The translations under genes and the position numbers were made by a program. The notes beneath the pieces are model-generated. The model searched no databases, was not told the origin of the DNA, and saw nothing but the letters and a program-made list of their open reading frames with translations. From the NCBI RefSeq assembly GCF_900129825.1, contig NZ_FQWZ01000001.1, forward strand, positions 62,001 through 126,000: a stretch of 64,000 nt of DNA. The letters are read 5' to 3'. This document shows positions 12,328-24,459 of this stretch, one piece after another. How positions within the stretch are numbered: the first letter of the stretch is position 1; every line of letters starts with the position of its first letter. The DNA is from Hydrocarboniphaga daqingensis (lineage in GTDB: Bacteria; Pseudomonadota; Gammaproteobacteria; Nevskiales; Nevskiaceae).

Positions 12328-12402
12328 TGGGGCGTAGCCAAGTGGTAAGGCAGCGGGTTTTGATCCCGTCATTCGGTGGTTCGAATCCATCCGCCCCAGC
12401 CA
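12328..12402 (+). tRNA. tRNA-Gln (anticodon TTG)
   Basis: A complete cloverleaf of 75 bases with encoded CCA. The acceptor stem is TGGGGCG/CGCCCCA. The D arm has TAGCCAAGTGGTAAGGC. The anticodon loop TTTTGAT gives anticodon TTG (UUG). The T arm is GGTGG-TTCGAAT-CCATC. It is placed between ispE and prs as in many gammaproteobacteria. Confidence 0.97.
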
Positions 12403-12428
12403 GTTTCACCAGGCAGTTTCAGAGGAAA

Positions 12429-12485
12429 GCCAAAGCGGGTTTTGATCCCGACTCACTCAATGGGTTCGAATCCATCCGCTCCAGC
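12429..12485 (+). pseudogene. Degenerate second tRNA-Gln (truncated)
   Basis: Twenty-seven bases after the real tRNA-Gln, the anticodon arm is repeated exactly (GCGGGTTTTGATCCCG), followed by an altered variable region and a copy of the T loop and 3' acceptor (GGTTCGAATCCATCCGCTCCAGCC). The 5' acceptor strand and D arm are missing. The T stem is broken: ATGGG cannot pair with CCATC beyond two bases. It cannot fold as a tRNA. It is probably the remnant of a tandem tRNA pair, or less likely a scar of integration into the tRNA 3' half. Confidence 0.85.
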
Positions 12486-12553
12486 CCGCTTTAGATCCGC
12501 TACACCGCCCAGCCGCATCCCTCCCAGCCGCGCCTAGCCACGAGAATCGCCCC

Positions 12554-15081: not shown

Positions 15082-15371
15082 CGTGAATCTCCATTCGTTG
15101 GACGGGACCGTCGGTCCCGGGACGAACAGCAGATTGCGCGGCCAGACTTAAGAAACCGTTAAGAGCGCACGGCGCCGTTTGCATCCTTTTGTAACTTGGA
15201 AGCGAACACCCATCGCCCAAGGTCAGCACATCGGGATGCCCTCGCGGAAAGTTCGCGTGAAGCATTTGAGAACCGAGCTCAAGCCCAGAAAGGGGTAATT
15301 TATGAGCGTCGCGGGAGCCGCTATATCGCCCCATGCGACCCGTGCGAGCCAGTCAGGGATCGGAACCGCGC
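15082..15371. other. Intergenic region upstream of degP, no gene seen
   Basis: This 290-base gap must hold the degP promoter on the minus strand. I see no credible coding sequence, tRNA or strong hairpin. The base composition falls towards the right, where the hsdR relic begins. The left edge contains the short dyad GGGACCGTCGGTCCC just upstream of the degP start, a possible regulatory or hairpin element. Confidence 0.4.
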
Positions 15372-15781
15372 ATGGGCGGGCAGAACGGATTAAGCGTAGA
15401 CGACATCAGTGTGAAATTCATCACACTCGCCCTGCGCAAGGCCGGCTGGGATGAAACCATGCAGATTCGTCGACAGGTATCGTCCACCAATGACAGCGTC
15501 ATCGAGCGTCGACAGCTAGACAGCCGCCACATCCCGCTGGCGCTGACCGCAGCGAAGAAGGCGATATTCGTCAAAGCGCATGGCACTCAGCAGGCGCTCG
15601 ACTGCGCTGCTCGCCTCGATATTCCTTTTGTGTCTGCTGGCAACAGCGAGGTCTCTGCCTTTAACGATAAGACCGGCAGAGGGAATCTTGGGGAAGTTCA
15701 CCGTCGCTCGATGCCTACTCCTCACCCGAGCAGCAGTGGGGCAAGTGCCAGACATTGGAAGGGATGAGCACAGCTGGCTAA
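15372..15781 (+). pseudogene. Type I restriction HsdR N-terminal remnant (frameshifted)
   Basis: The reading frame from ATG 15372 gives LSVDDISVKFITLALRKAGW, then QIRRQVS, then IPLALTAAKKA and HGTQQALDCAARLDIPFV. This is the pattern of the N-terminal nuclease part of EcoEI-type HsdR (family form LSEADI…FITPAL..AGW, QIRREV, IPLAVIEAKDN, GMQQALDYA..LDIPF). The stretch expected to carry the D..E.K nuclease residues is deleted or altered: no ADY, and EAK is AAK. The following family motif LDaFPSPe.LW.ry appears only in another frame from 15704 (SLDAYSSPEQQWGKCQ), so a frameshift is present. The helicase part and hsdM/hsdS are absent. This is a dead fragment. Confidence 0.72.
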
Positions 15782-15980: not shown

Positions 15981-18900
15981 GTGACTTGGAAGGTAGAAGC
16001 TGTTGTCGCAGCGAAGATTGGCTTCGCAACACATCAGAATGCTGTCCCCATAATCCGAGAGCTTCGCGTTTCAGCGCTAGACGAGGGATCCGAAGAATCG
16101 ATGACCTTGGTTGTCTCGGCGGATCCCCCGTTCGTCGGTGAAAAAACTTGGCGCCTCGACCTTATGTCCGCCGGCGACACGCTGCCGATCAACGATCGCA
16201 ACGTGCCCCTTAATGCCACGCTGCTGCAAGGGCTCACGGAGAGTCTTTTCGGCACGCTCAAGCTCTCTCTTCGATCGAAGGACGGCGTCCTCCTCGCCGA
16301 AGCCCACTATCAGGTTGAGCTCCTCGCACACAATCAGTGGGGAGGCGCAGGCACGATGTCGGAGCTGCTGCCGGCCTTTGTCATGCCCAACGACCCCGCA
16401 GTGGACCGCGTACTCAAGGCGGCGTCCGAGGTGCTTCGCCGTTCTGGGCGCCCGGATGCAATCGACGGCTATACCGCTCAGTCGCGCGAACGGGCTTGGG
16501 AGTTCGCGTCTGCAATCTGGGCTGCCATTGGGGGCCTTCGCCTATCCTATTCGCTGCCGCCAGCGAGTTTTGAGGTCCAAGGCCAGAAGGTTCGGACGCC
16601 TTCGCAGATCCTGGATGGCCGAATAGCGACGTGCCTAGACACCGCACTGCTCTTTGCGGCCGCACTTGAGCAGGCGAGCTTTAACCCGCTGATCGTGCTC
16701 ACGAAGGGCCACGCCTTCGTCGGTGTTTGGCTTCAACCGATCGAGTTCACGACGCTCGTCGTCGAAGAAGCCGCGGCGCTGCGACGCCGTATCGATGTGA
16801 AGGACATGATCCTGTTCGAGACCACTCTCGCCACCCAGAGCCCGCCGGCGTCGTTCAGCCAAGCGATCGCTGAGGCTTCAAGGCAGCTTGAAGAAGCGAA
16901 CGAAGCCAATTTTCACGCGGCGATCGACATTCGACGCGCCCGCATGCAGAAGATTCGTCCGTTGGGGGTTGCCGTTCGCAGCGAAGGCGTACAGAGCGAG
17001 GAAGCCCCCGTCTTCTCCGAAGGCCTCGAAACAGCGCCGCGACTGCCCGGTTTCGATATCGATGCCCCTGATGATGCTCCGACAGCTTCCGGGCGCGTGT
17101 TGCAATGGCAGCGCAAGCTCCTCAATTTGACGACGAGCAACAACCTACTCAGTCACCGTGCGACTAAAAGTGTTGTCCGGCTTCTCTGCCCCGATCCAGG
17201 ATCGCTGGAGGACCTGCTGGCCACCGGCAAGAAGGTCCGCATCATCCCGCTTCCCGATCTCGGCGTTGGTGGGCGCGATGAGGAGACTTACAGACAGCAG
17301 ACCCGTAGCAGCCTGCGAGATGAGGTTGCCAATCAGGCGATGCGCCGCGGCGAGGTGCTATCCGATATGGGTAAGGACGCGCTCGACGCAGCACTCATTG
17401 AGCTCTATCGCAAGGCGCGCTCCGACATGGAGGAGGGCGGCTCGAATACGTTGTTCCTCGCCCTCGGCTTCCTGAAATGGAAGAAGCTGGCCACGGACGA
17501 CAATGCCTACCGTGCGCCGCTGATCCTGCTTCCTATCCGCCTCGAGCGCCGCAATGCGATGGCGGGTGTGACGATAGTCGCTCACGAAGACGAGCCTCGC
17601 TTCAACCTGACCCTGCTGGAGTTGCTCCGTCAGGACTTTGAGCTTGAGCTCCCCGCTCTCGAGGGTGAGTTGCCGAAGGACTACAGTGGCATCGACGTCG
17701 AGGGGGTCTGGGCCATCGTTCGGTCGCGCATCAAGGACATTCCAGGATTCGAAGTAGTCCCGGACGTCGCCATAGGCACGTTCTCATTCGCGAAGTACCT
17801 GATGTGGCGTGATCTTGTTGACCGCGCTGACCAGCTCAAGGACAGCCCTGTCGTGAGGCACCTGATCGAGCGTGATGGGTCGGTCGACATCGACAAGGGC
17901 AACTTCCCACATCCCGATTCCCTTGATCAGAAGATTGACCCGGCGCAGCTGTTCACACCCCTCCCGGCTGACAGCTCTCAGTTGGCTGCTGTCGTCGCGT
18001 CCGCTGAGGATCGAGACTTCGTTCTGGATGGGCCGCCCGGCACTGGCAAGTCGCAGACCATCGCAAACATCATCGCCCACAACCTGGCGCTTGGTCGCCG
18101 CGTTCTCTTCGTCGCCGAGAAGCGCGCTGCGCTGGACGTGGTGCAGCGGCGCCTTGCTGACAAGGGCCTTGCACCTTTCTGTCTGGAACTTCATTCAGCC
18201 AAAGCGACGAAGACCGCTGTCCTCAAGCAGCTTGACAGGGCCTGGACAGCACGCGAGACGCTTTCCGAGGCTGAATGGATGCGCGAGGCCGGCGAATCGA
18301 AGCGCCTTCGGGACGAGCTCAACAGCGTGGTGTCTCTCCTGCATCGACGAGAGCCCAACGGTTGGTCGATTCATCGCGCGATTGGCCAAACCGTTCGAGA
18401 CGACGCTGATCGGTTTCCTAAGCTTGAGTTCCCCCGTGGTGCCAGGCACTCCTCGGATCAGATGGACGCCTTCCGGGATATCATTCGCAGGCTCGGAATT
18501 GCCTACAAGTCGGTTGAAGGCCTATCGCAAGACCTTGAAGGGGTAACGCGTAGCGACTGGACCAACGAGTGGCAGGAACAGATCGTCGATGCCTCCCGAC
18601 GGATTCCGAGCGCACTCGATGCAGTCGAGCAGGCACGAGACAAGCTGGCAGCGGTGACTAAGCTCCCGATTGCCGCGGCTGATCAGCAGGGAATGGCTCG
18701 GCTCCTTCGGTTTGTGGAGCTGTGCCTCGGCTTCCATGGGAAGGATGTCCGATTTGCCTTCGCACCAGACTTGTCAGAGCGCGTCGCAGCGGCTCGCGAG
18801 TCGGCCAAGCTCGCCGACGCATACCGGCGGGACGAGGCGGCCCTAAGCGCACCGTACGTTGCAGAAGCGGCCCGCCGAGTCGACCTCGATGGATTCAAAA

Positions 18901-21857
18901 AGGCATACGCGGAGGCTGGGACGAAGTTCTGGTTCTTAGCCAAGCTTGCACAGAAGAAGGTTGCGCGCTCGCTGGCGGATGCTGGCGGCGTTAGCGCACC
19001 GGTGAACCCCGCTGCCGATCTTCCTCGGCTCGGCGCCATGCGTGATGTGCTGACGCGACTCGACACGCTTGCGCCTCTGGCTTCTGGTATCCCCGGATGG
19101 GCGGGCCTGTCTTCTGACGGTGCTCAGATTGAGTACGCGATACAGCTTGGCGAAAAGCTCCGCTCCGCGATCGCAGCCGAAGCCGACAGCCCGGAGGCGC
19201 TCCTCGCGATGCGCGGTGCGACCTCGACACTCGTTTTCGAGGCCAACGAGATCCTGGGTGCTGAGGGTCCCGTTGCGGTAGCTGCGCTTCGTCTACGCCA
19301 GGCGCTAGACCATTTCGACACGATCCTGACTGACTTCACCCGACTAGCAGGAGGCGTCGATAGCCCGGACCTCGATGCGCTTCGGGCCCGCGCGGACCAA
19401 ATCTCGAAAAACGGCCGTCGACTGCGGGATTGGACAGCGTGGCGCCGCGTCCGGATGGAGGCGATGCAGGCTGATATGGCCTCGATTGTGGTGGGTCTTG
19501 AAAGCGGGCAGGTCTCTGCCAACCGCGTTCTGGAGGTCTTTGAGGCTGCCTATGCCCGCTGGTTCGCCTTCGGCCGGATCGACGAGGAGCCGCTGCTGAG
19601 GGATTTCATGTCCGGGGAGCATGAAGACCGAATCGAGCGATTCCGCGTGCTCGATGACCGGATGAGCGATCTTGCGTCCCGCTACATCCGAGCGAAGCTG
19701 TGCGGCCAGATTCCTGACAAGAACGTGGTCGGGAAGAAAGATGGCTACGGCACGCTGAAGCATCAGCTTCAGCTGCAAAAACCGAGCATGCCGATACGCA
19801 AGCTCGCGGCTGAGATGGGCGACGCCTTCACCCGGCTTGCCCCGTGCATGCTGATGAGCCCGCTGTCGATCGCCCAGTACCTTCCCGCCAATCAGGCCAT
19901 GTTCGACCTCGTGATTTTCGACGAGGCTTCGCAGATCCCGCCATGGGACGCGATCGGAGCAATGGCCCGCGGCAAGCGAGTGATCATCGCTGGCGACCCC
20001 CGGCAGATGCCGCCAAGCAACGACTTTGCACGAGCCGCCGGCGGCGCACCTGCAGACGATGACACCACGCCGGATATGCCGAGCATTCTCGATGAATGTC
20101 TCGCGGCCGGTGTGCCGAAGCATAGTCTCGACTGGCACTACCGCAGTCGCCACGAGAGCTTGATCTGCTTCTCGAACACTCGCTATTACGGCAGCCAACT
20201 CGTCACCTTCCCGGCCCCGGAGACCCGCCCTAGCGCCGTTACATGGGAGCGAGTTCAAGGCGTCTACACCCCTGGTGCACGAACCAACCCGGTCGAAGCA
20301 CAAGCTCTCGTCGACGAGGCAGTGAGGCGGCTTCGCGATCCCAGCTTCGTTGACGATCGCGGGAATCCCCTGTCGCTCGGCATCATCACGATGAACGCGG
20401 AGCAGATGCGGTTGGTCGAGGATCTTCTAGACCGTGCTCGCCGAATTTACCCCGAGATCGAACCCCACTTCGACGCGGACACGCGGCTTGAGCCGGTCTG
20501 CATCCGTAACCTCGAGACGGTGCAGGGTGACGAACGCGATCTGATCCTGCTCGGCATCAACTTCGGCCCAACCGTTCCTAGCGGAACCACGATGTCGATG
20601 ACCTTCGGGAAGCTGAACGCGAACGGCGGATGGCGGCGTCTCAATGTCGCCGTAACGCGCGCTCGCAGAGAAATGAAGGTCTTTAGTTCCTTCGACCCCG
20701 GCATGATCGATCTCACGCGCACTTCTGCTGAGGGGGTGCGCGACCTGAAAGCCTTCATCGAGTACGCAGACCGCGGCCCGCGCGCGCTGGCTGAGGCGAA
20801 TAAGGGTTCCATGGGTGCGGCCGATTCGCCCTTCGAAGAAGCGGTGACCGCTGCGCTTCGCGACCGAGGCTGGACGCTCATACCTCAAGTAGGCGTGTCG
20901 AAGTTCCGCATCGACATGGGTCTTGTTCACCCGGATCGCCCGGGCGACTTCTTGGTTGGTATCGAATGTGATGGCGCGACCTATCACAGTGCAGCGACCG
21001 CGCGAGATCGCGACAAGGTGCGCGCTTCGATCCTCAAGGGGCTGGGTTGGTCGCTGATACGAGTCTGGTCGACCGACTGGTGGATCGACAAGCAGCGCGC
21101 AACGGACATCTTGCACGCGAAGATCGAGGAGACGCTCGCGGCGGATCGGTTGGCTGTACAGGAGCGCACCCTTCGTGAAGCGGAAGCCCGTGCCGAGCAG
21201 GAAGCTCGTCAGCAACTCGAGCGCGAGGCTGATGAGGCGCGCGCTCAGGCAATCGGGGCGGGCATCGATGTCAACCCGATTGCGGACGGTCCTGAGCCTG
21301 CTGCACAGCCAGAGTCCGCGACTGCGCTGCCGTTCAGCGACCCTGACTCTGCTGCAGCGGAAGGATTCATCGCTCGATCCGACCGGAAGGACCGCTACGT
21401 AGTCGCGGATTTCTCGCGCCTATCAGTTTTGGCTAATCCAGATCTTTTCTACGACCCTGGGTATGACGCGACCCTGACCGCGCTCATCGACTACGTGCTG
21501 GCGAAGGAGGCCCCAATTGCTGAGCGCCAGCTCGTACAGCGTGTTGCCCGTGCACACGGGTTTCAACGCGCGGGCCGTGTCATCCGCGATCGGGTCATGT
21601 CGGTAGCGGGCATGCACTATCTGATTGATCAAGAGGATGGCGGCGGCCAATTTGTCTGGTTAGACAGTGCTCAACGTGAATCTTGGAATATCGCTCGGTC
21701 GCCAACGCGACCGGAGGAGATTCGTCCGATCGAAGATATCCACCTCGATGAGATCCGGATCGCCAGAGACGAGGTCGCTGATCCCGTGGAGGTTGCGCGC
21801 CTATTCGGGATTCGTCGACTCTCGGCTGCGTCGAGGCAGCGAATCGAAAATGCCTAA
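15981..21857 (+). CDS. Giant defence-type helicase–nuclease (TGase-like, DUF4011, SF1 helicase, Vsr-like, DUF3320)
   Basis: A single 1,958-residue protein. Start GTG 15981 has GGAGAG four bases upstream. In order it shows: a transglutaminase-like core (about 140–300) with Cys218 (RIATCLDTALLFAAAL) and His244 (KGHAFVGVW); DUF4011 (about 375–650; RVLQWQRKLLNLTTSNNLL); SF1 helicase motif I GPPGTGKS at 684–691; a long insert; Walker B DEAS at 1314–1317; GDPRQMPP; YRSRHESLI; VQGDERDLILL near 1513; and VAVTRARRE near 1556. It then has a Vsr/MTES_1575-type nuclease with D1645 (FRIDMG) and E1662/D1664 (GIECDG), followed by RVWSTDWW, and last a DUF3320-like tail. All core ATPase and nuclease residues are present, so it looks active. 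The architecture resembles single-gene Hhe-type anti-phage proteins (from memory). GC content and neighbours suggest transfer. Confidence 0.9.
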   Translation: MTWKVEAVVAAKIGFATHQNAVPIIRELRVSALDEGSEESMTLVVSADPPFVGEKTWRLDLMSAGDTLPINDRNVPLNATLLQGLTESLFGTLKLSLRSKDGVLLAEAHYQVELLAHNQWGGAGTMSELLPAFVMPNDPAVDRVLKAASEVLRRSGRPDAIDGYTAQSRERAWEFASAIWAAIGGLRLSYSLPPASFEVQGQKVRTPSQILDGRIATCLDTALLFAAALEQASFNPLIVLTKGHAFVGVWLQPIEFTTLVVEEAAALRRRIDVKDMILFETTLATQSPPASFSQAIAEASRQLEEANEANFHAAIDIRRARMQKIRPLGVAVRSEGVQSEEAPVFSEGLETAPRLPGFDIDAPDDAPTASGRVLQWQRKLLNLTTSNNLLSHRATKSVVRLLCPDPGSLEDLLATGKKVRIIPLPDLGVGGRDEETYRQQTRSSLRDEVANQAMRRGEVLSDMGKDALDAALIELYRKARSDMEEGGSNTLFLALGFLKWKKLATDDNAYRAPLILLPIRLERRNAMAGVTIVAHEDEPRFNLTLLELLRQDFELELPALEGELPKDYSGIDVEGVWAIVRSRIKDIPGFEVVPDVAIGTFSFAKYLMWRDLVDRADQLKDSPVVRHLIERDGSVDIDKGNFPHPDSLDQKIDPAQLFTPLPADSSQLAAVVASAEDRDFVLDGPPGTGKSQTIANIIAHNLALGRRVLFVAEKRAALDVVQRRLADKGLAPFCLELHSAKATKTAVLKQLDRAWTARETLSEAEWMREAGESKRLRDELNSVVSLLHRREPNGWSIHRAIGQTVRDDADRFPKLEFPRGARHSSDQMDAFRDIIRRLGIAYKSVEGLSQDLEGVTRSDWTNEWQEQIVDASRRIPSALDAVEQARDKLAAVTKLPIAAADQQGMARLLRFVELCLGFHGKDVRFAFAPDLSERVAAARESAKLADAYRRDEAALSAPYVAEAARRVDLDGFKKAYAEAGTKFWFLAKLAQKKVARSLADAGGVSAPVNPAADLPRLGAMRDVLTRLDTLAPLASGIPGWAGLSSDGAQIEYAIQLGEKLRSAIAAEADSPEALLAMRGATSTLVFEANEILGAEGPVAVAALRLRQALDHFDTILTDFTRLAGGVDSPDLDALRARADQISKNGRRLRDWTAWRRVRMEAMQADMASIVVGLESGQVSANRVLEVFEAAYARWFAFGRIDEEPLLRDFMSGEHEDRIERFRVLDDRMSDLASRYIRAKLCGQIPDKNVVGKKDGYGTLKHQLQLQKPSMPIRKLAAEMGDAFTRLAPCMLMSPLSIAQYLPANQAMFDLVIFDEASQIPPWDAIGAMARGKRVIIAGDPRQMPPSNDFARAAGGAPADDDTTPDMPSILDECLAAGVPKHSLDWHYRSRHESLICFSNTRYYGSQLVTFPAPETRPSAVTWERVQGVYTPGARTNPVEAQALVDEAVRRLRDPSFVDDRGNPLSLGIITMNAEQMRLVEDLLDRARRIYPEIEPHFDADTRLEPVCIRNLETVQGDERDLILLGINFGPTVPSGTTMSMTFGKLNANGGWRRLNVAVTRARREMKVFSSFDPGMIDLTRTSAEGVRDLKAFIEYADRGPRALAEANKGSMGAADSPFEEAVTAALRDRGWTLIPQVGVSKFRIDMGLVHPDRPGDFLVGIECDGATYHSAATARDRDKVRASILKGLGWSLIRVWSTDWWIDKQRATDILHAKIEETLAADRLAVQERTLREAEARAEQEARQQLEREADEARAQAIGAGIDVNPIADGPEPAAQPESATALPFSDPDSAAAEGFIARSDRKDRYVVADFSRLSVLANPDLFYDPGYDATLTALIDYVLAKEAPIAERQLVQRVARAHGFQRAGRVIRDRVMSVAGMHYLIDQEDGGGQFVWLDSAQRESWNIARSPTRPEEIRPIEDIHLDEIRIARDEVADPVEVARLFGIRRLSAASRQRIENA

Positions 21858-22123: not shown

Positions 22124-22268
22124 TTGGGCTCCGCTTAAGACAATGAATGGTATTGGGGGCTGGGGCGACCGAATGCGAGGCTCAATCAATCTGCGTAACA
22201 GCCGCCGGGTTCTACCCCGTTTTCACGGACACTTTCGAGAAGGCCGAGACTAGCCGCAAGGAGTGTTC

Positions 22269-22410
22269 ATGTCGAAGAGAAGGAAGTTCAGTTCGCAGTT
22301 CAAGCAAGGGGCTGTCGAGCAAGTCCAACAGCCTGGTATTAACTGTGCGCAGGTGGCGCGTGAGCTGGGTAACGGCGCCAATCTGCTGACCCGCTGGCGC
22401 CGTGAAGCGG
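22269..22410 (+). pseudogene. IS3-family OrfA fragment (HTH)
   Basis: ATG 22269 follows AAGGAG at 22257–22262. The product begins MSKRRKFSSQFKQGAVEQV and continues CAQVARELGNGANLLTRWRREAEAE, the helix-turn-helix DNA-binding part of IS3-family OrfA. The leucine-zipper half that should follow is absent. After about 22405 the frame reads OrfB sequence out of phase and produces meaningless protein. Confidence 0.8.
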
Positions 22411-22992
22411 AAGCCGAAGCCCCGGCGTTCGTCGTCGAGGCGGCCGATTGGTCGTCGGCCGCGAGTCGAAGCTTTGCCATCGAAGGCGCAGGCGCCGAAT
22501 CAGCGCTGGGCAACCGACTTGTGCCGCGTTTGGGCAGGCCGGGACGGCTGGGCGAGCTTGGCGGTGGTCATCGATTGCCACACACGCGAGCTGCTGGGCT
22601 GGCATCTGTCACGCACGGGCCGTGCAACGACGGCCAGTGCTGCCCTGGAGCAAGCGCTGATCGCTCGGTTCGGGACCCTGGGGCGCGTTCCGGTGCCGTT
22701 TCTACTGCGATCCGACAATGGCTTGGTCTTCACGAGTCGGCACTACACGGCGCTGGTTCGCAGCTACGGTCTGAAGCAGGAATTCATCACGCCGCACTGC
22801 CCACAGCAGAACGGCATGGTGGAGCGTGTGATCCGATCGCTGAAGGAGCAATGCGTGCACCGGCATCGCTTCGAAACCCTGCAGCATGCCAGCCGACTGA
22901 TCAGTAACTGGATCGCGTTCTACAACCATCGGCGCCCGCATCAGGCGCTGAAGATGAAAGCACCCGCCGAGGCATTCGCCTTAGCGGCCTGA
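22411..22992 (+). pseudogene. IS3-family OrfB fragment (DDE integrase core)
   Basis: The frame reads GRRPRVEALPSKAQAPNQRW, then ATDLCRVW (first Asp), RSDNGLVFTSRHY (second Asp) and QQNGMVERVIRSLKEQC (Glu), ending FYNHRRPHQALKMKAPAEA. This is the rve integrase core of an IS3-family transposase with the complete DDE triad, but the N-terminal HTH_21 part is deleted and there is no start of its own. A cryptic start could yield only an isolated catalytic domain. Confidence 0.85.
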
Positions 22993-23133: not shown

Positions 23134-24459
23134 CTAGAGGTTTTCTTCCGGTCGGGCCGAATCGCCGAATCGGACGCTGACCTGCAGCCCTCGCCCGTCC
23201 GGCCCTTCGCCCAGTTCCACGCTGGCGCCGTGGGCGTCGGCGATGCTGCGGACGATCGCCAGCCCCAGGCCGCTGCCGCCGGCTGCGCTGCCGGCGACGC
23301 GGTAGAAGCGGTCGAATACGCGGCCACGCTCGTCGGCTGGGATGCCGGGGCCTTGGTCGATGACGCGCAGCTGTACCGCGCCGGCGATGCGCTCGACGAC
23401 GATCTCGACCTGCGACAACTCCGGTGCATAGCGAAGCGCGTTGTCGATCAGGTTGCGCAGCAGCGCGCGCAGGCCATCGGCATCGCCGTGTATCGCGCCC
23501 TCGTCATCGGCGCTCAGGCCCAGCTCGATCTGTCGCGCATCGGCGGTGGGCAGCAGGTCGGCGATGACCTCGCGCGCCAGCTCGGCCAGTTGCAGCGGCG
23601 ACCACGCGGCGGCGCGCGATTCCGGCGCGTCCTGCCGTGCCATCACCAGCATTTGCTCGACCAAGCGCGCCGCGCGATCGATGCCGGCGCCCAGCGCATG
23701 CGCCGCATCGCGGCGCTCGTCGTCGCTGGCCGCGTCCAGTCCGCGCAGCTGCAGGCGCAACGCGGTCAGCGGCGTGCGCAGCTCGTGTGCGGCATCGGCG
23801 ATGAAGCGGCGCTCGCGATCGCGAAGCGCCGCGAGGCGCGCCAACAGATCGTTCAGCGCCGTGACCAGCGGCTGCACTTCGTCCGGCAGCGGCCTGACCG
23901 GCAACGGCGCCAGCTCGCGAGCCGGTCGCGCACCGACTTCGTCGGCGAGGCTGCGCAGCGGTCGCAGCGCGCGGCCCACGGTGAGCCAGATGATCAAGCC
24001 CAACATCGGCAAGGCCAGCGCCAGCGGGGCCAGCAGGCGCAAGGCCAGCCGCGCCGCACGCGACTCGCGTACCCGCATCGGCTGCGCAACCTGGATCACG
24101 TTGAACGGCGTCTGCAGGCCATAGACGCGCCAATGCGCGTCGGGCGTCTTGACGCTGGAAAACCCAAGCGTGGTCAGGCCCGGCATGCTGGCGTAGCGCT
24201 GCGACGAGTACACGCGCACACCGGTCAAGCTCCACACTTGGACGACCAGATCGGCCGCTGCCTCGCGCTCGCCGTAGGTCGGCGACGTCGGCAGGAAGCT
24301 GCGGTCGCGCAGCGCCAGCGCGGTTTCCTGCAGCTGCTCGTCGAACACCCGGTCGGCTTCATCAAGTGCCCGGTGGTACAGGCCGACGCCGACCGCGATG
24401 CCGACCAGCAGCAGCGCGCCAGTCAGCCACAGCAGCAAGCGCGCGCGCAGCGAGCTCAT
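23134..24459 (-). CDS. Membrane sensor histidine kinase (QseC/TctE-like)
   Basis: 441 residues: a transmembrane helix (about 8–27), a periplasmic sensor of about 110 residues, a second helix (about 137–162), HAMP-like linker, HisKA with DAAHELRTPLTALRLQL (His225) and HATPase_c with NLIDNALRYA, DQGPGIP and GSGLGLAIVR. This domain order and the paired OmpR-type regulator match QseC/TctE/PmrB-type sensors of cations, carboxylates or envelope state. The signal cannot be read from the sequence. Its start overlaps the regulator's stop by four bases (ATGA), so they are co-expressed. Confidence 0.9.
   Translation of the reverse strand: MSSLRARLLLWLTGALLLVGIAVGVGLYHRALDEADRVFDEQLQETALALRDRSFLPTSPTYGEREAAADLVVQVWSLTGVRVYSSQRYASMPGLTTLGFSSVKTPDAHWRVYGLQTPFNVIQVAQPMRVRESRAARLALRLLAPLALALPMLGLIIWLTVGRALRPLRSLADEVGARPARELAPLPVRPLPDEVQPLVTALNDLLARLAALRDRERRFIADAAHELRTPLTALRLQLRGLDAASDDERRDAAHALGAGIDRAARLVEQMLVMARQDAPESRAAAWSPLQLAELAREVIADLLPTADARQIELGLSADDEGAIHGDADGLRALLRNLIDNALRYAPELSQVEIVVERIAGAVQLRVIDQGPGIPADERGRVFDRFYRVAGSAAGGSGLGLAIVRSIADAHGASVELGEGPDGRGLQVSVRFGDSARPEENL

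What the first reader, a model, noticed from the sequence alone, without database searches (positions are those of the whole stretch)
15981..21857. Giant single-gene helicase–Vsr nuclease with an N-terminal transglutaminase-like domain
The ATPase motifs (GPPGTGKS, DEAS, GDPRQ, VTRARR) and the nuclease residues (D1645, E1662, D1664) are intact. The architecture DUF4011–helicase–Vsr-like–DUF3320 resembles Hhe-type defence proteins, as I recall. The additional Cys218/His244 domain resembles a transglutaminase or cysteine-peptidase fold. A protease-like module joined to a helicase–nuclease hints at a two-output mechanism (DNA cutting plus protein processing or sensing), which I do not know to have been tested.
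Basis: partly seen in the sequence, partly recalled or inferred. Interest (0 to 1): 0.88.

Follow-up and report, generated by a model that had tools for sequence, protein, structure and literature searches.

The report
Phage-defence helicase-nuclease with protease-like domain
One very large bacterial gene joins a DNA-unwinding motor, a DNA-cutting domain and a well-preserved protease-like domain; it belongs to an anti-phage family already named in databases, and what the protease-like part does is an open, directly testable question.

Summary
Window 15981-21857 (+) is one intact 1958-aa ORF with the cited motifs and residues. It is not Hhe but fits NCBIfam NF058533, "anti-phage protein ProA": 2067 bits, cut-off 1500; Hhe 751, cut-off 2000. 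The transglutaminase-like claim, sub-threshold in Pfam, is upheld by structure: residues 117-328 model at pLDDT 95 and match PNGase, TglA and TG2, VIA Z 8.7-9.6. C218/H244 stand in 111 of 111 and E280 in 112 of 112 aligned sequences that cover them. Exceptions outside that alignment: two divergent relatives lost the triad together with a nuclease acid; a cyanobacterial member has Asn for E280. The module's dN/dS (median 0.047, 25 pairs) is near the nuclease's (0.035) and below the helicase's (0.095). It maps to one clade; some relatives carry an M48 peptidase or kinase in that position. The gene lies in an ~8-kb insertion. Architecture and protein cleavage were predicted in 2013 (PMC3710099). 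Activity and its role in defence remain untested here.

The parts
15981..21857 (+). ProA-family gene, 1958 aa, GTG start
   Evidence: the start lines up with the ORF start of the relative L032 (sequences)
15987..16322 (+). N-terminal beta-sandwich, residues 3-114
   Evidence: AlphaFold model, mean pLDDT 95; VIA matches to beta-sandwich domains of factor XIII, HAP2 and a CARDB domain
16329..16964 (+). transglutaminase-like cysteine-peptidase-fold module, residues 117-328
   Evidence: model pLDDT 95.1, pTM 0.92; fold matches
16632..16634 (+). C218 codon, putative nucleophile at the start of helix 218-231
16710..16712 (+). H244 codon, putative catalytic His at the start of strand 244-250
16818..16820 (+).
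17115..17627 (+). DUF4011, residues 379-549
   Evidence: Pfam 8e-44
17970..18269 (+). SF1 helicase first core, AAA_11 residues 664-763, Walker A GPPGTGKS with K690
20088..20684 (+). SF1 helicase second core, AAA_12 residues 1370-1568; DEAS (1314) and GDPRQ (1338) lie just before it
20832..21125 (+). Vsr-like nuclease MTES_1575, residues 1618-1715 with D1645, E1662, D1664
   Evidence: Pfam 1.3e-33; conservation
21441..21590 (+). DUF3320, described as winged HTH, residues 1821-1870
   Evidence: Pfam 3.7e-15; wHTH description from PMC3710099
15165..23165 (.). ~8-kb insertion absent at this site in two same-genus genomes
   Evidence: homology to G001 stops at 15164 and resumes at 23166, with 145 bases between in G001; in G002 about 1.1 kb of other DNA lies there; htrA and rplY on the flanks located
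15333..15767 (+). remnant of a type I restriction R subunit (N-terminal part only)
   Evidence: PADLOC REase_I 1e-11, profile 8-134 of 807; no Pfam match
22263..22992 (+). IS3-like transposase remnant
   Evidence: rve domains in 22402-22992; the IS3 label is my reading

Best explanation
The gene encodes a single-protein, horizontally acquired anti-phage enzyme of the ProA family. Shown here: an SF1 helicase core with intact motifs, a Vsr-type nuclease with intact acids, and an N-terminal beta-sandwich plus transglutaminase-fold module whose C218-H244-E280 triad is intact, almost invariant in the family and under purifying selection similar to that on the nuclease. Inferred: the helicase moves on invading or replicating phage DNA, recognised perhaps by the faster-evolving parts (beta-sandwich, helicase insert, C-terminal linker/wHTH), and the Vsr domain cuts it. 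No conserved partner gene was found and no methyltransferase was seen beside the gene in the window, so discrimination is probably by DNA state rather than by methylation. Inferred: the transglutaminase-like module is a working amide- or peptide-cleaving enzyme that acts as a second output or as an activation step in the same pathway.
For: Family: NF058533 2067 bits against cut-off 1500 over residues 15-1934. Fold. Triad: C and H in 111/111 and E in 112/112 aligned sequences that cover these positions, of 118 in the alignment, and in L057, L058, L059, L061. Selection: dN/dS medians TG 0.047, DUF4011 0.040, Vsr 0.035, helicase 0.095, beta-sandwich 0.136, helicase insert 0.155, linker+wHTH 0.238 over 18-25 pairs. 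In L060/L065 the triad and nuclease acid E1662 are both lost, with some helicase motifs altered. The 46 rows with the module, of 70, lie on one side of a single branch, SH-aLRT 98. No conserved partner gene among 83 loci including the window. Mobile setting: ~8-kb insertion, HsdR remnant, 81 plasmid records with a match to the module, 69 of them over at least 80% of the query and 25 of the 81 typed conjugative.
Against: No experiment. The anti-phage label comes from the NCBIfam name; I found no paper on it (ProA was a term; the architecture), so whether the module was ever mutated is unknown to me. L072 and L073 keep the triad but have M and L at nuclease position 1662, so the two activities are not strictly linked. 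Relatives without the module exist (L040-L045), and 23 of 118 family sequences show every other domain but no DUF3320-type match, so a wHTH is not needed by all. Most neighbours in the window are housekeeping genes, not a defence island.
Confidence: 0.68

Rival explanations
1. The transglutaminase-fold module is a non-catalytic recognition or assembly domain, as in Rad4/XPC, which use this fold to bind damaged DNA.
For: Rad4 structures are among the fold matches, VIA Z about 8. Two divergent relatives have lost the triad and keep a complete ORF.
Against: C and H kept in 111/111 and E in 112/112 and low dN/dS; where the triad is lost, a nuclease acid is lost too, which looks like general decay into a pseudo-enzyme.
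Confidence: 0.17
2. The module is an enzyme but not a protease: a deamidase, amidase or cross-linking transglutaminase acting on a phage or host protein.
For: The fold matches include PNGase, TglA, TG2/TG3 and pseudomurein endoisopeptidases as well as putative or known proteases; fold does not tell the reaction.
Against: None direct; the 2013 authors favoured protein cleavage (PMC3710099).
Confidence: 0.25
3. The protein is a DNA-repair or stress factor rather than a defence enzyme.
For: A DUF4011 gene is a core gene flanking defence hotspot cDHS1, found in every P. aeruginosa isolate (PMC10250203, passages), so DUF4011 proteins as a class need not be defence genes. TerB-M48 relatives exist.
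Against: Curated anti-phage family cut-off met, patchy distribution (3 of 61 genomes over cut-off, own genome included), insertion absent in two same-genus genomes, plasmid carriage.
Confidence: 0.1
4. The module's triad serves autoprocessing: the protein cuts itself to release the helicase-nuclease.
For: The end of the modelled stretch, residues 331-345, just after the module, has low confidence (pLDDT about 52), as a flexible linker would.
Against: No conserved cleavage motif was looked for; low confidence at the end of a cut-out stretch is weak evidence; relatives without the module exist.
Confidence: 0.12

Closest known systems
NCBIfam NF058533, anti-phage protein ProA
   Same: Full-length match over residues 15-1934, well above cut-off; same domain order in most of the 118 family sequences.
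   Different: Nothing essential found. The source publication of the name was not found in the library searched.
Hhe (NCBIfam NF042953; PADLOC Hhe)
   Same: Shares the DUF4011-SF1 helicase-Vsr core (751 bits NCBIfam, 523 bits PADLOC).
   Different: Below the Hhe cut-off of 2000 bits; best-scoring stretch is residues 1129-1752.
PADLOC PDC-S37 (candidate defence protein)
   Same: 1110 bits over residues 373-1957.
   Different: The match does not cover the beta-sandwich and transglutaminase-like module; relatives L040-L045 lack it altogether.
[quoted passage not shown] 2013, PMC3710099)
   Same: Transglutaminase-like, SF-I helicase, Vsr REase and DUF3320/wHTH in one protein; protein cleavage already proposed.
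   Different: No N-terminal HEPN domain in the window protein: residues 3-114 are a beta-sandwich, 117-328 the transglutaminase fold.
PNGase, TglA, TG2 and ciliary transglutaminase-like proteins (solved structures)
   Same: Fold of residues 117-328; Cys-His-acid order.
   Different: Sequence identity 8-17% in the rows listed for these chains; third residue is Glu here; none of the titles listed names a helicase-nuclease fusion.

Membership tests
ProA (NCBIfam NF058533) | whole-protein score at or above curated cut-off of 1500 bits | tested here: met
   2066.8 bits, residues 15-1934 on profile 2-1881 of 1903
ProA (NCBIfam NF058533) | demonstrated anti-phage activity | not testable with these tools
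   no experiment; family name only
Hhe (NCBIfam NF042953) | whole-protein score at or above curated cut-off of 2000 bits | tested here: not met
   751.2 bits
PDC-S37 (PADLOC) | match to the PADLOC model over its length | tested here: inconclusive
   1110 bits over profile 10-1528 of 1550, but no cut-off is given and the N-terminal 372 residues lie outside it
Transglutaminase-like superfamily | transglutaminase/papain-like fold | tested here: met
   model of residues 117-328; VIA 3esw Z 9.6, rmsd 3.9, 157 aligned; 3kd4 Z 9.4, 3.1, 134; 9crn TglA Z 9.4, 3.0, 132; TG2 6kzb Z 8.7, 4.2, 167. Foldseek best E 1.1e-3, none at 0.001 or better
Transglutaminase-like superfamily | Cys-His-acid residues in canonical order and secondary-structure positions (positions recalled) | tested here: met
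   C218 at helix start, H244 at strand start, E280 just after strand 276-279; C, H 111/111 and E 112/112; geometry not measured
Transglutaminase-like superfamily | Pfam gathering score (DUF553 or Transglut_core) | tested here: not met
   DUF553 15.7 bits against 20.5; no Transglut_core match listed
Transglutaminase-like superfamily | peptidase, amidase or transglutaminase activity | not testable with these tools
   needs biochemistry
MTES_1575 Vsr-like REase (PF18741) | gathering score of 38.2 bits | tested here: met
   115.3 bits
HEPN-transglutaminase-helicase-Vsr-wHTH giants (PMC3710099) | N-terminal HEPN domain | tested here: not met
   residues 1-345 fold as beta-sandwich plus transglutaminase fold; no HEPN match at E 1
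HEPN-transglutaminase-helicase-Vsr-wHTH giants (PMC3710099) | transglutaminase, SF-I helicase, Vsr and wHTH/DUF3320 in one chain | tested here: met

The most novel reading that the evidence does not exclude
ProA is a two-output defence enzyme: engagement of phage DNA by the helicase-nuclease licenses the C-H-E transglutaminase-fold enzyme to cut or modify a phage or host protein. More widely, the N-terminal position of DUF4011-helicase-Vsr proteins is an exchangeable enzyme slot (transglutaminase fold in ProA; M48 metallopeptidase with HELGH plus TerB in L165 and L197; protein kinase in L161 and L164; HEPN RNase added to the transglutaminase domain in the published MTES_1575 class), so that one DNA-sensing platform drives several kinds of output.
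Probability: 0.3. Interest if true: 0.75.

Novelty: new member of a known kind. Interest (0 to 1): 0.43.

Why it matters
If the triad works, ProA would couple a DNA-sensing motor and nuclease to a protein-modifying enzyme in one chain, a coupling proposed in 2013 for which I found no test in the searches listed. The E280 assignment, the near-invariance of the triad, its selection level and the joint loss of triad and nuclease acid in one lineage turn a recalled resemblance into specific point mutants. The varying N-terminal domains suggest a wider design: one DNA-engaging platform with several outputs.

Tried and rejected
Hhe membership: rejected on score. HEPN domain at the N terminus: none found; none either in the N-terminal ORF of a Microbacterium plasmid relative (no Pfam match at E 0.01). 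A conserved partner gene: none among 83 loci; the largest neighbour cluster (15 loci) joins ORFs of very different length on both sides and strands and looks like an artefact of single-link clustering, and the others are small or follow genus synteny. Five loci (L073, L079, L140, L144, L151) share two neighbour clusters, and four of them a third whose letters read like an HsdS subunit; I take these for type I restriction genes by eye, not from a family search. The window's HsdR fragment did not match the neighbours of these loci (best other hit E 0.67); it matched PADLOC REase_I instead. Extra N-terminal residues in L058: not identified. Modules in L048-L055 sit inside longer proteins that read as secreted NHL/TPR-like proteins (my reading of the letters); I take them for distant homologues outside defence. 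Sequence search of solved structures with the module profile found no transglutaminase (only match VPS26, E 1.9). E. coli complete genomes: no near match to the E. coli E69 gene L134. Ten searches of the open paper library: none brought a paper on an anti-phage ProA. Fold search with the whole N-terminal model listed mostly beta-sandwich matches, with three transglutaminase-fold rows among 50 reaching the second domain, so the module was modelled alone. A second MTES_1575 match in the own genome is a DUF559 domain within an HrpA-type helicase, not a second ProA. Rows dropped: L122 and L133 were left out because the longest ORF was not the target; L005 and L006 because they are not ProA; L003 because it repeats the window; 135 core sequences were thinned to 70 for the tree by similarity; six of 88 loci were left out. 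Some rows may be the same organism in two collections (L002 and L106 lie on contigs of the same length), and L066/L067 are near-copies, so 111 is not 111 independent genomes. The dN/dS values are simple pairwise counts on one fast alignment without confidence limits; pairs were chosen by dS 0.15-1.2 over residues 117-700, and a few have high dS or odd dN. Minus-strand loci were misread and redone.

Full report
Observation. The window carries one uninterrupted ORF at 15981-21857 (+), 1958 aa with a GTG start. Pfam finds DUF4011, two AAA helicase domains, the MTES_1575 Vsr-like nuclease and DUF3320 above their cut-offs; the transglutaminase signal is DUF553 at E 0.044, below cut-off. By sequence the helicase resembles SMUBP2, Sen1 and DNA2. 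The genome gives one match to the protein.

Family. NCBIfam NF058533, 'anti-phage protein ProA', scores 2066.8 bits against a cut-off of 1500, over residues 15-1934; Hhe scores 751 against 2000. PADLOC gives PDC-S37 at 1110 bits over 373-1957 and Hhe at 523. In 398 genomes of the phylum 32 exceed the ProA cut-off; in 61 relatives 3 do, the own genome included in both counts. A relative of the module is encoded in 287 stretches of the genome collection; the best 80 were kept, and by the genus and family names in their titles they include Pseudomonadota, Verrucomicrobiota, Desulfobacterota and Bacteroidota (phyla assigned from recall). Matches also lie in 8 loci of the viral-contig collection, in 81 plasmid records, 69 of them over at least 80% of the query and 25 of the 81 typed conjugative, and in one unannotated phage record. 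A few of the weakest plasmid matches are other proteins, such as a stand-alone gene in Bacteroides.

The N-terminal module. Residues 1-345 were modelled with an alignment of 56 sequences at mean pLDDT 95.3 and pTM 0.91: a beta-sandwich at 3-114 and an alpha/beta domain at 123-322. The second domain modelled alone (117-328, 36 sequences) has pLDDT 95.1 and pTM 0.92. Foldseek gives no match at E 0.001 or better, but its first ten rows are ciliary 96-nm-repeat (9e5c, 9y6s), putative protease, PNGase, TgpA, putative cysteine protease and TGase chains, best E 1.1e-3. VIA-align puts 28 chains at Z 8 or more: yeast PNGase 3esw Z 9.6 (rmsd 3.9, 157 aligned), 3kd4 Z 9.4 (3.1, 134), TglA 9crn Z 9.4 (3.0, 132), TG2 6kzb Z 8.7 (4.2, 167); Rad4 is also there at about 8. 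I take 9e5c_1m and 9y6s_8G to be DRC7-like from recall; the listing does not name the chain. By the model's secondary structure C218 begins a helix, H244 begins a strand and E280 follows a strand, the order of the superfamily's Cys-His-acid triad (recalled). Geometry could not be measured.

Conservation. Of 118 aligned ProA-type sequences, C218 and H244 are kept in all 111 that cover them and E280 in all 112; of the 7 gapped at C218, six (L040-L045) begin at DUF4011 and L039 lies at the end of its contig. K690 is kept in 117/117, D1645 and D1664 in 111/111, E1662 in 109/111, the two exceptions being viral-contig loci L072 (M) and L073 (L). Outside that alignment L057, L058, L059 and L061 keep the triad. 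Results against invariance: L060 and L065, divergent relatives in two genomes of one genus, have Ala for Cys, Met for His and Asp for Glu; they also have Ile for nuclease acid E1662 and changes in some helicase motifs, with Walker A and DEA kept. A cyanobacterial plasmid member keeps Cys and His but has Asn at position 280; a Microbacterium plasmid member keeps all three by eye. In 118 sequences 23 show every domain except DUF3320.

Selection. Over disjoint pairs of moderately close genes, median dN/dS is 0.047 for the transglutaminase-like domain (25 pairs), 0.040 DUF4011 (25), 0.035 Vsr (23), 0.095 helicase with insert (24), 0.136 beta-sandwich (24), 0.155 helicase insert (24) and 0.238 linker plus wHTH (18). 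So the module is held about as tightly as the nuclease, while other parts change faster. That the faster parts touch the targets is inference.

Evolution and the N-terminal slot. On a quick tree of 70 core sequences, thinned from 135, the 46 rows with the module fall on one side of one branch (SH-aLRT 98), 0 of 500 shuffles as low. Among relatives outside ProA, L165 and L197 carry an M48 metallopeptidase domain followed by TerB, with HELGH readable in both, and L161 and L164 carry a protein kinase domain. The other N-terminal stretches scanned (L162, L163, L005, L006, L159, L198, L199, L200, L201, L202) gave no family above its cut-off other than DUF4011; L005 is the same gene as L197, cut short. 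The paper PMC3710099 describes HEPN beside the transglutaminase domain in the MTES_1575 class (passages read). I therefore read the N-terminal position as an exchangeable enzyme slot; this is inference from few examples. Long branches meet in that part of the tree, so the joins there are unsure.

Setting. Homology to same-genus genome G001 stops at 15164 and resumes at 23166, with 145 bases between in G001; in G002 homology breaks at nearly the same points, with about 1.1 kb of other DNA between. The insertion holds a remnant of a type I restriction R subunit at 15333-15767, the gene, a small ORF and an IS3-like remnant. Its G+C by kilobase is 0.56-0.63 against 0.64-0.71 in the three kilobases on either side, though other parts of the window also fall to about 0.60. 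No partner gene recurs among 83 loci. PADLOC on ten other ORFs nearby gave only the REase_I remnant and weak or generic protease, kinase and phosphoribosyl matches.

Mechanism. Shown: intact motifs, fold, conservation, selection, insertion and plasmid carriage. Inferred: the motor moves on phage DNA, the Vsr domain cuts, the module cleaves or modifies a protein in the same pathway. The strongest hint that module and nuclease belong to one pathway is their joint loss in L060/L065; L072 and L073, with the triad but without E1662, weaken it. Rivals are a non-catalytic scaffold, a non-protease enzyme, autoprocessing, and a repair role; each has a mutant test.

Prior art. Anantharaman et al. 2013 (PMC3710099; passages read) described this kind of giant protein, predicted independence from modification and suggested protein cleavage by the transglutaminase domain as a further line of defence. 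PMC10250203 (passages read) uses a DUF4011 gene as a core marker beside a P. aeruginosa defence hotspot. PMC10318531 (passages read) classifies papain-like enzymes; the passages returned for helicase, DUF553, phage and defense do not mention this fusion. No paper on an anti-phage ProA was found in the open library (ProA as a term); subscription papers are mostly not held there, so a test of the module may exist in print.

Verdict. Real, correctly located, a member of a named family with a fold now supported and a third triad residue assigned. Novelty is modest; the open question is whether the transglutaminase-like module is a working second effector.

Noticed in passing
   Followed up: partly
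L197 4809-11060 (+); L165 3225-9446 (-): Giant DUF4011-helicase-Vsr proteins with an N-terminal M48 metallopeptidase domain (HELGH) and TerB; L197 is from a genome of the same genus as the window.
   Followed up: partly
L161 1461-8561 (+); L164 2637-8963 (-): DUF4011-helicase-Vsr relatives with an N-terminal protein kinase domain.
   Followed up: partly
L196 1037-6139 (-), own genome contig C4: HrpA-type DEAH helicase (DUF3418, OB, HA2) with a DUF559 Vsr-like nuclease domain at residues 641-746, E 5e-38.
   Followed up: no
window 12328-12490: tRNA-Gln followed by what reads as a partial, degenerate copy of itself (by eye).
   Followed up: no
L057 4300-10159 (-): In G343, the nearest relative on the tree (L038), the N-terminal module lies in two ORFs, with the break near the Cys motif.
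   Followed up: no
L048-L055: Distant homologues of the transglutaminase-like module, with a Cys-His-Glu pattern, inside long proteins that read as secreted NHL/TPR-like proteins.
   Followed up: partly
L238 6992-13402 (+): Cyanobacterial plasmid version in two ORFs, with Asn instead of Glu at the third triad position.
   Followed up: no
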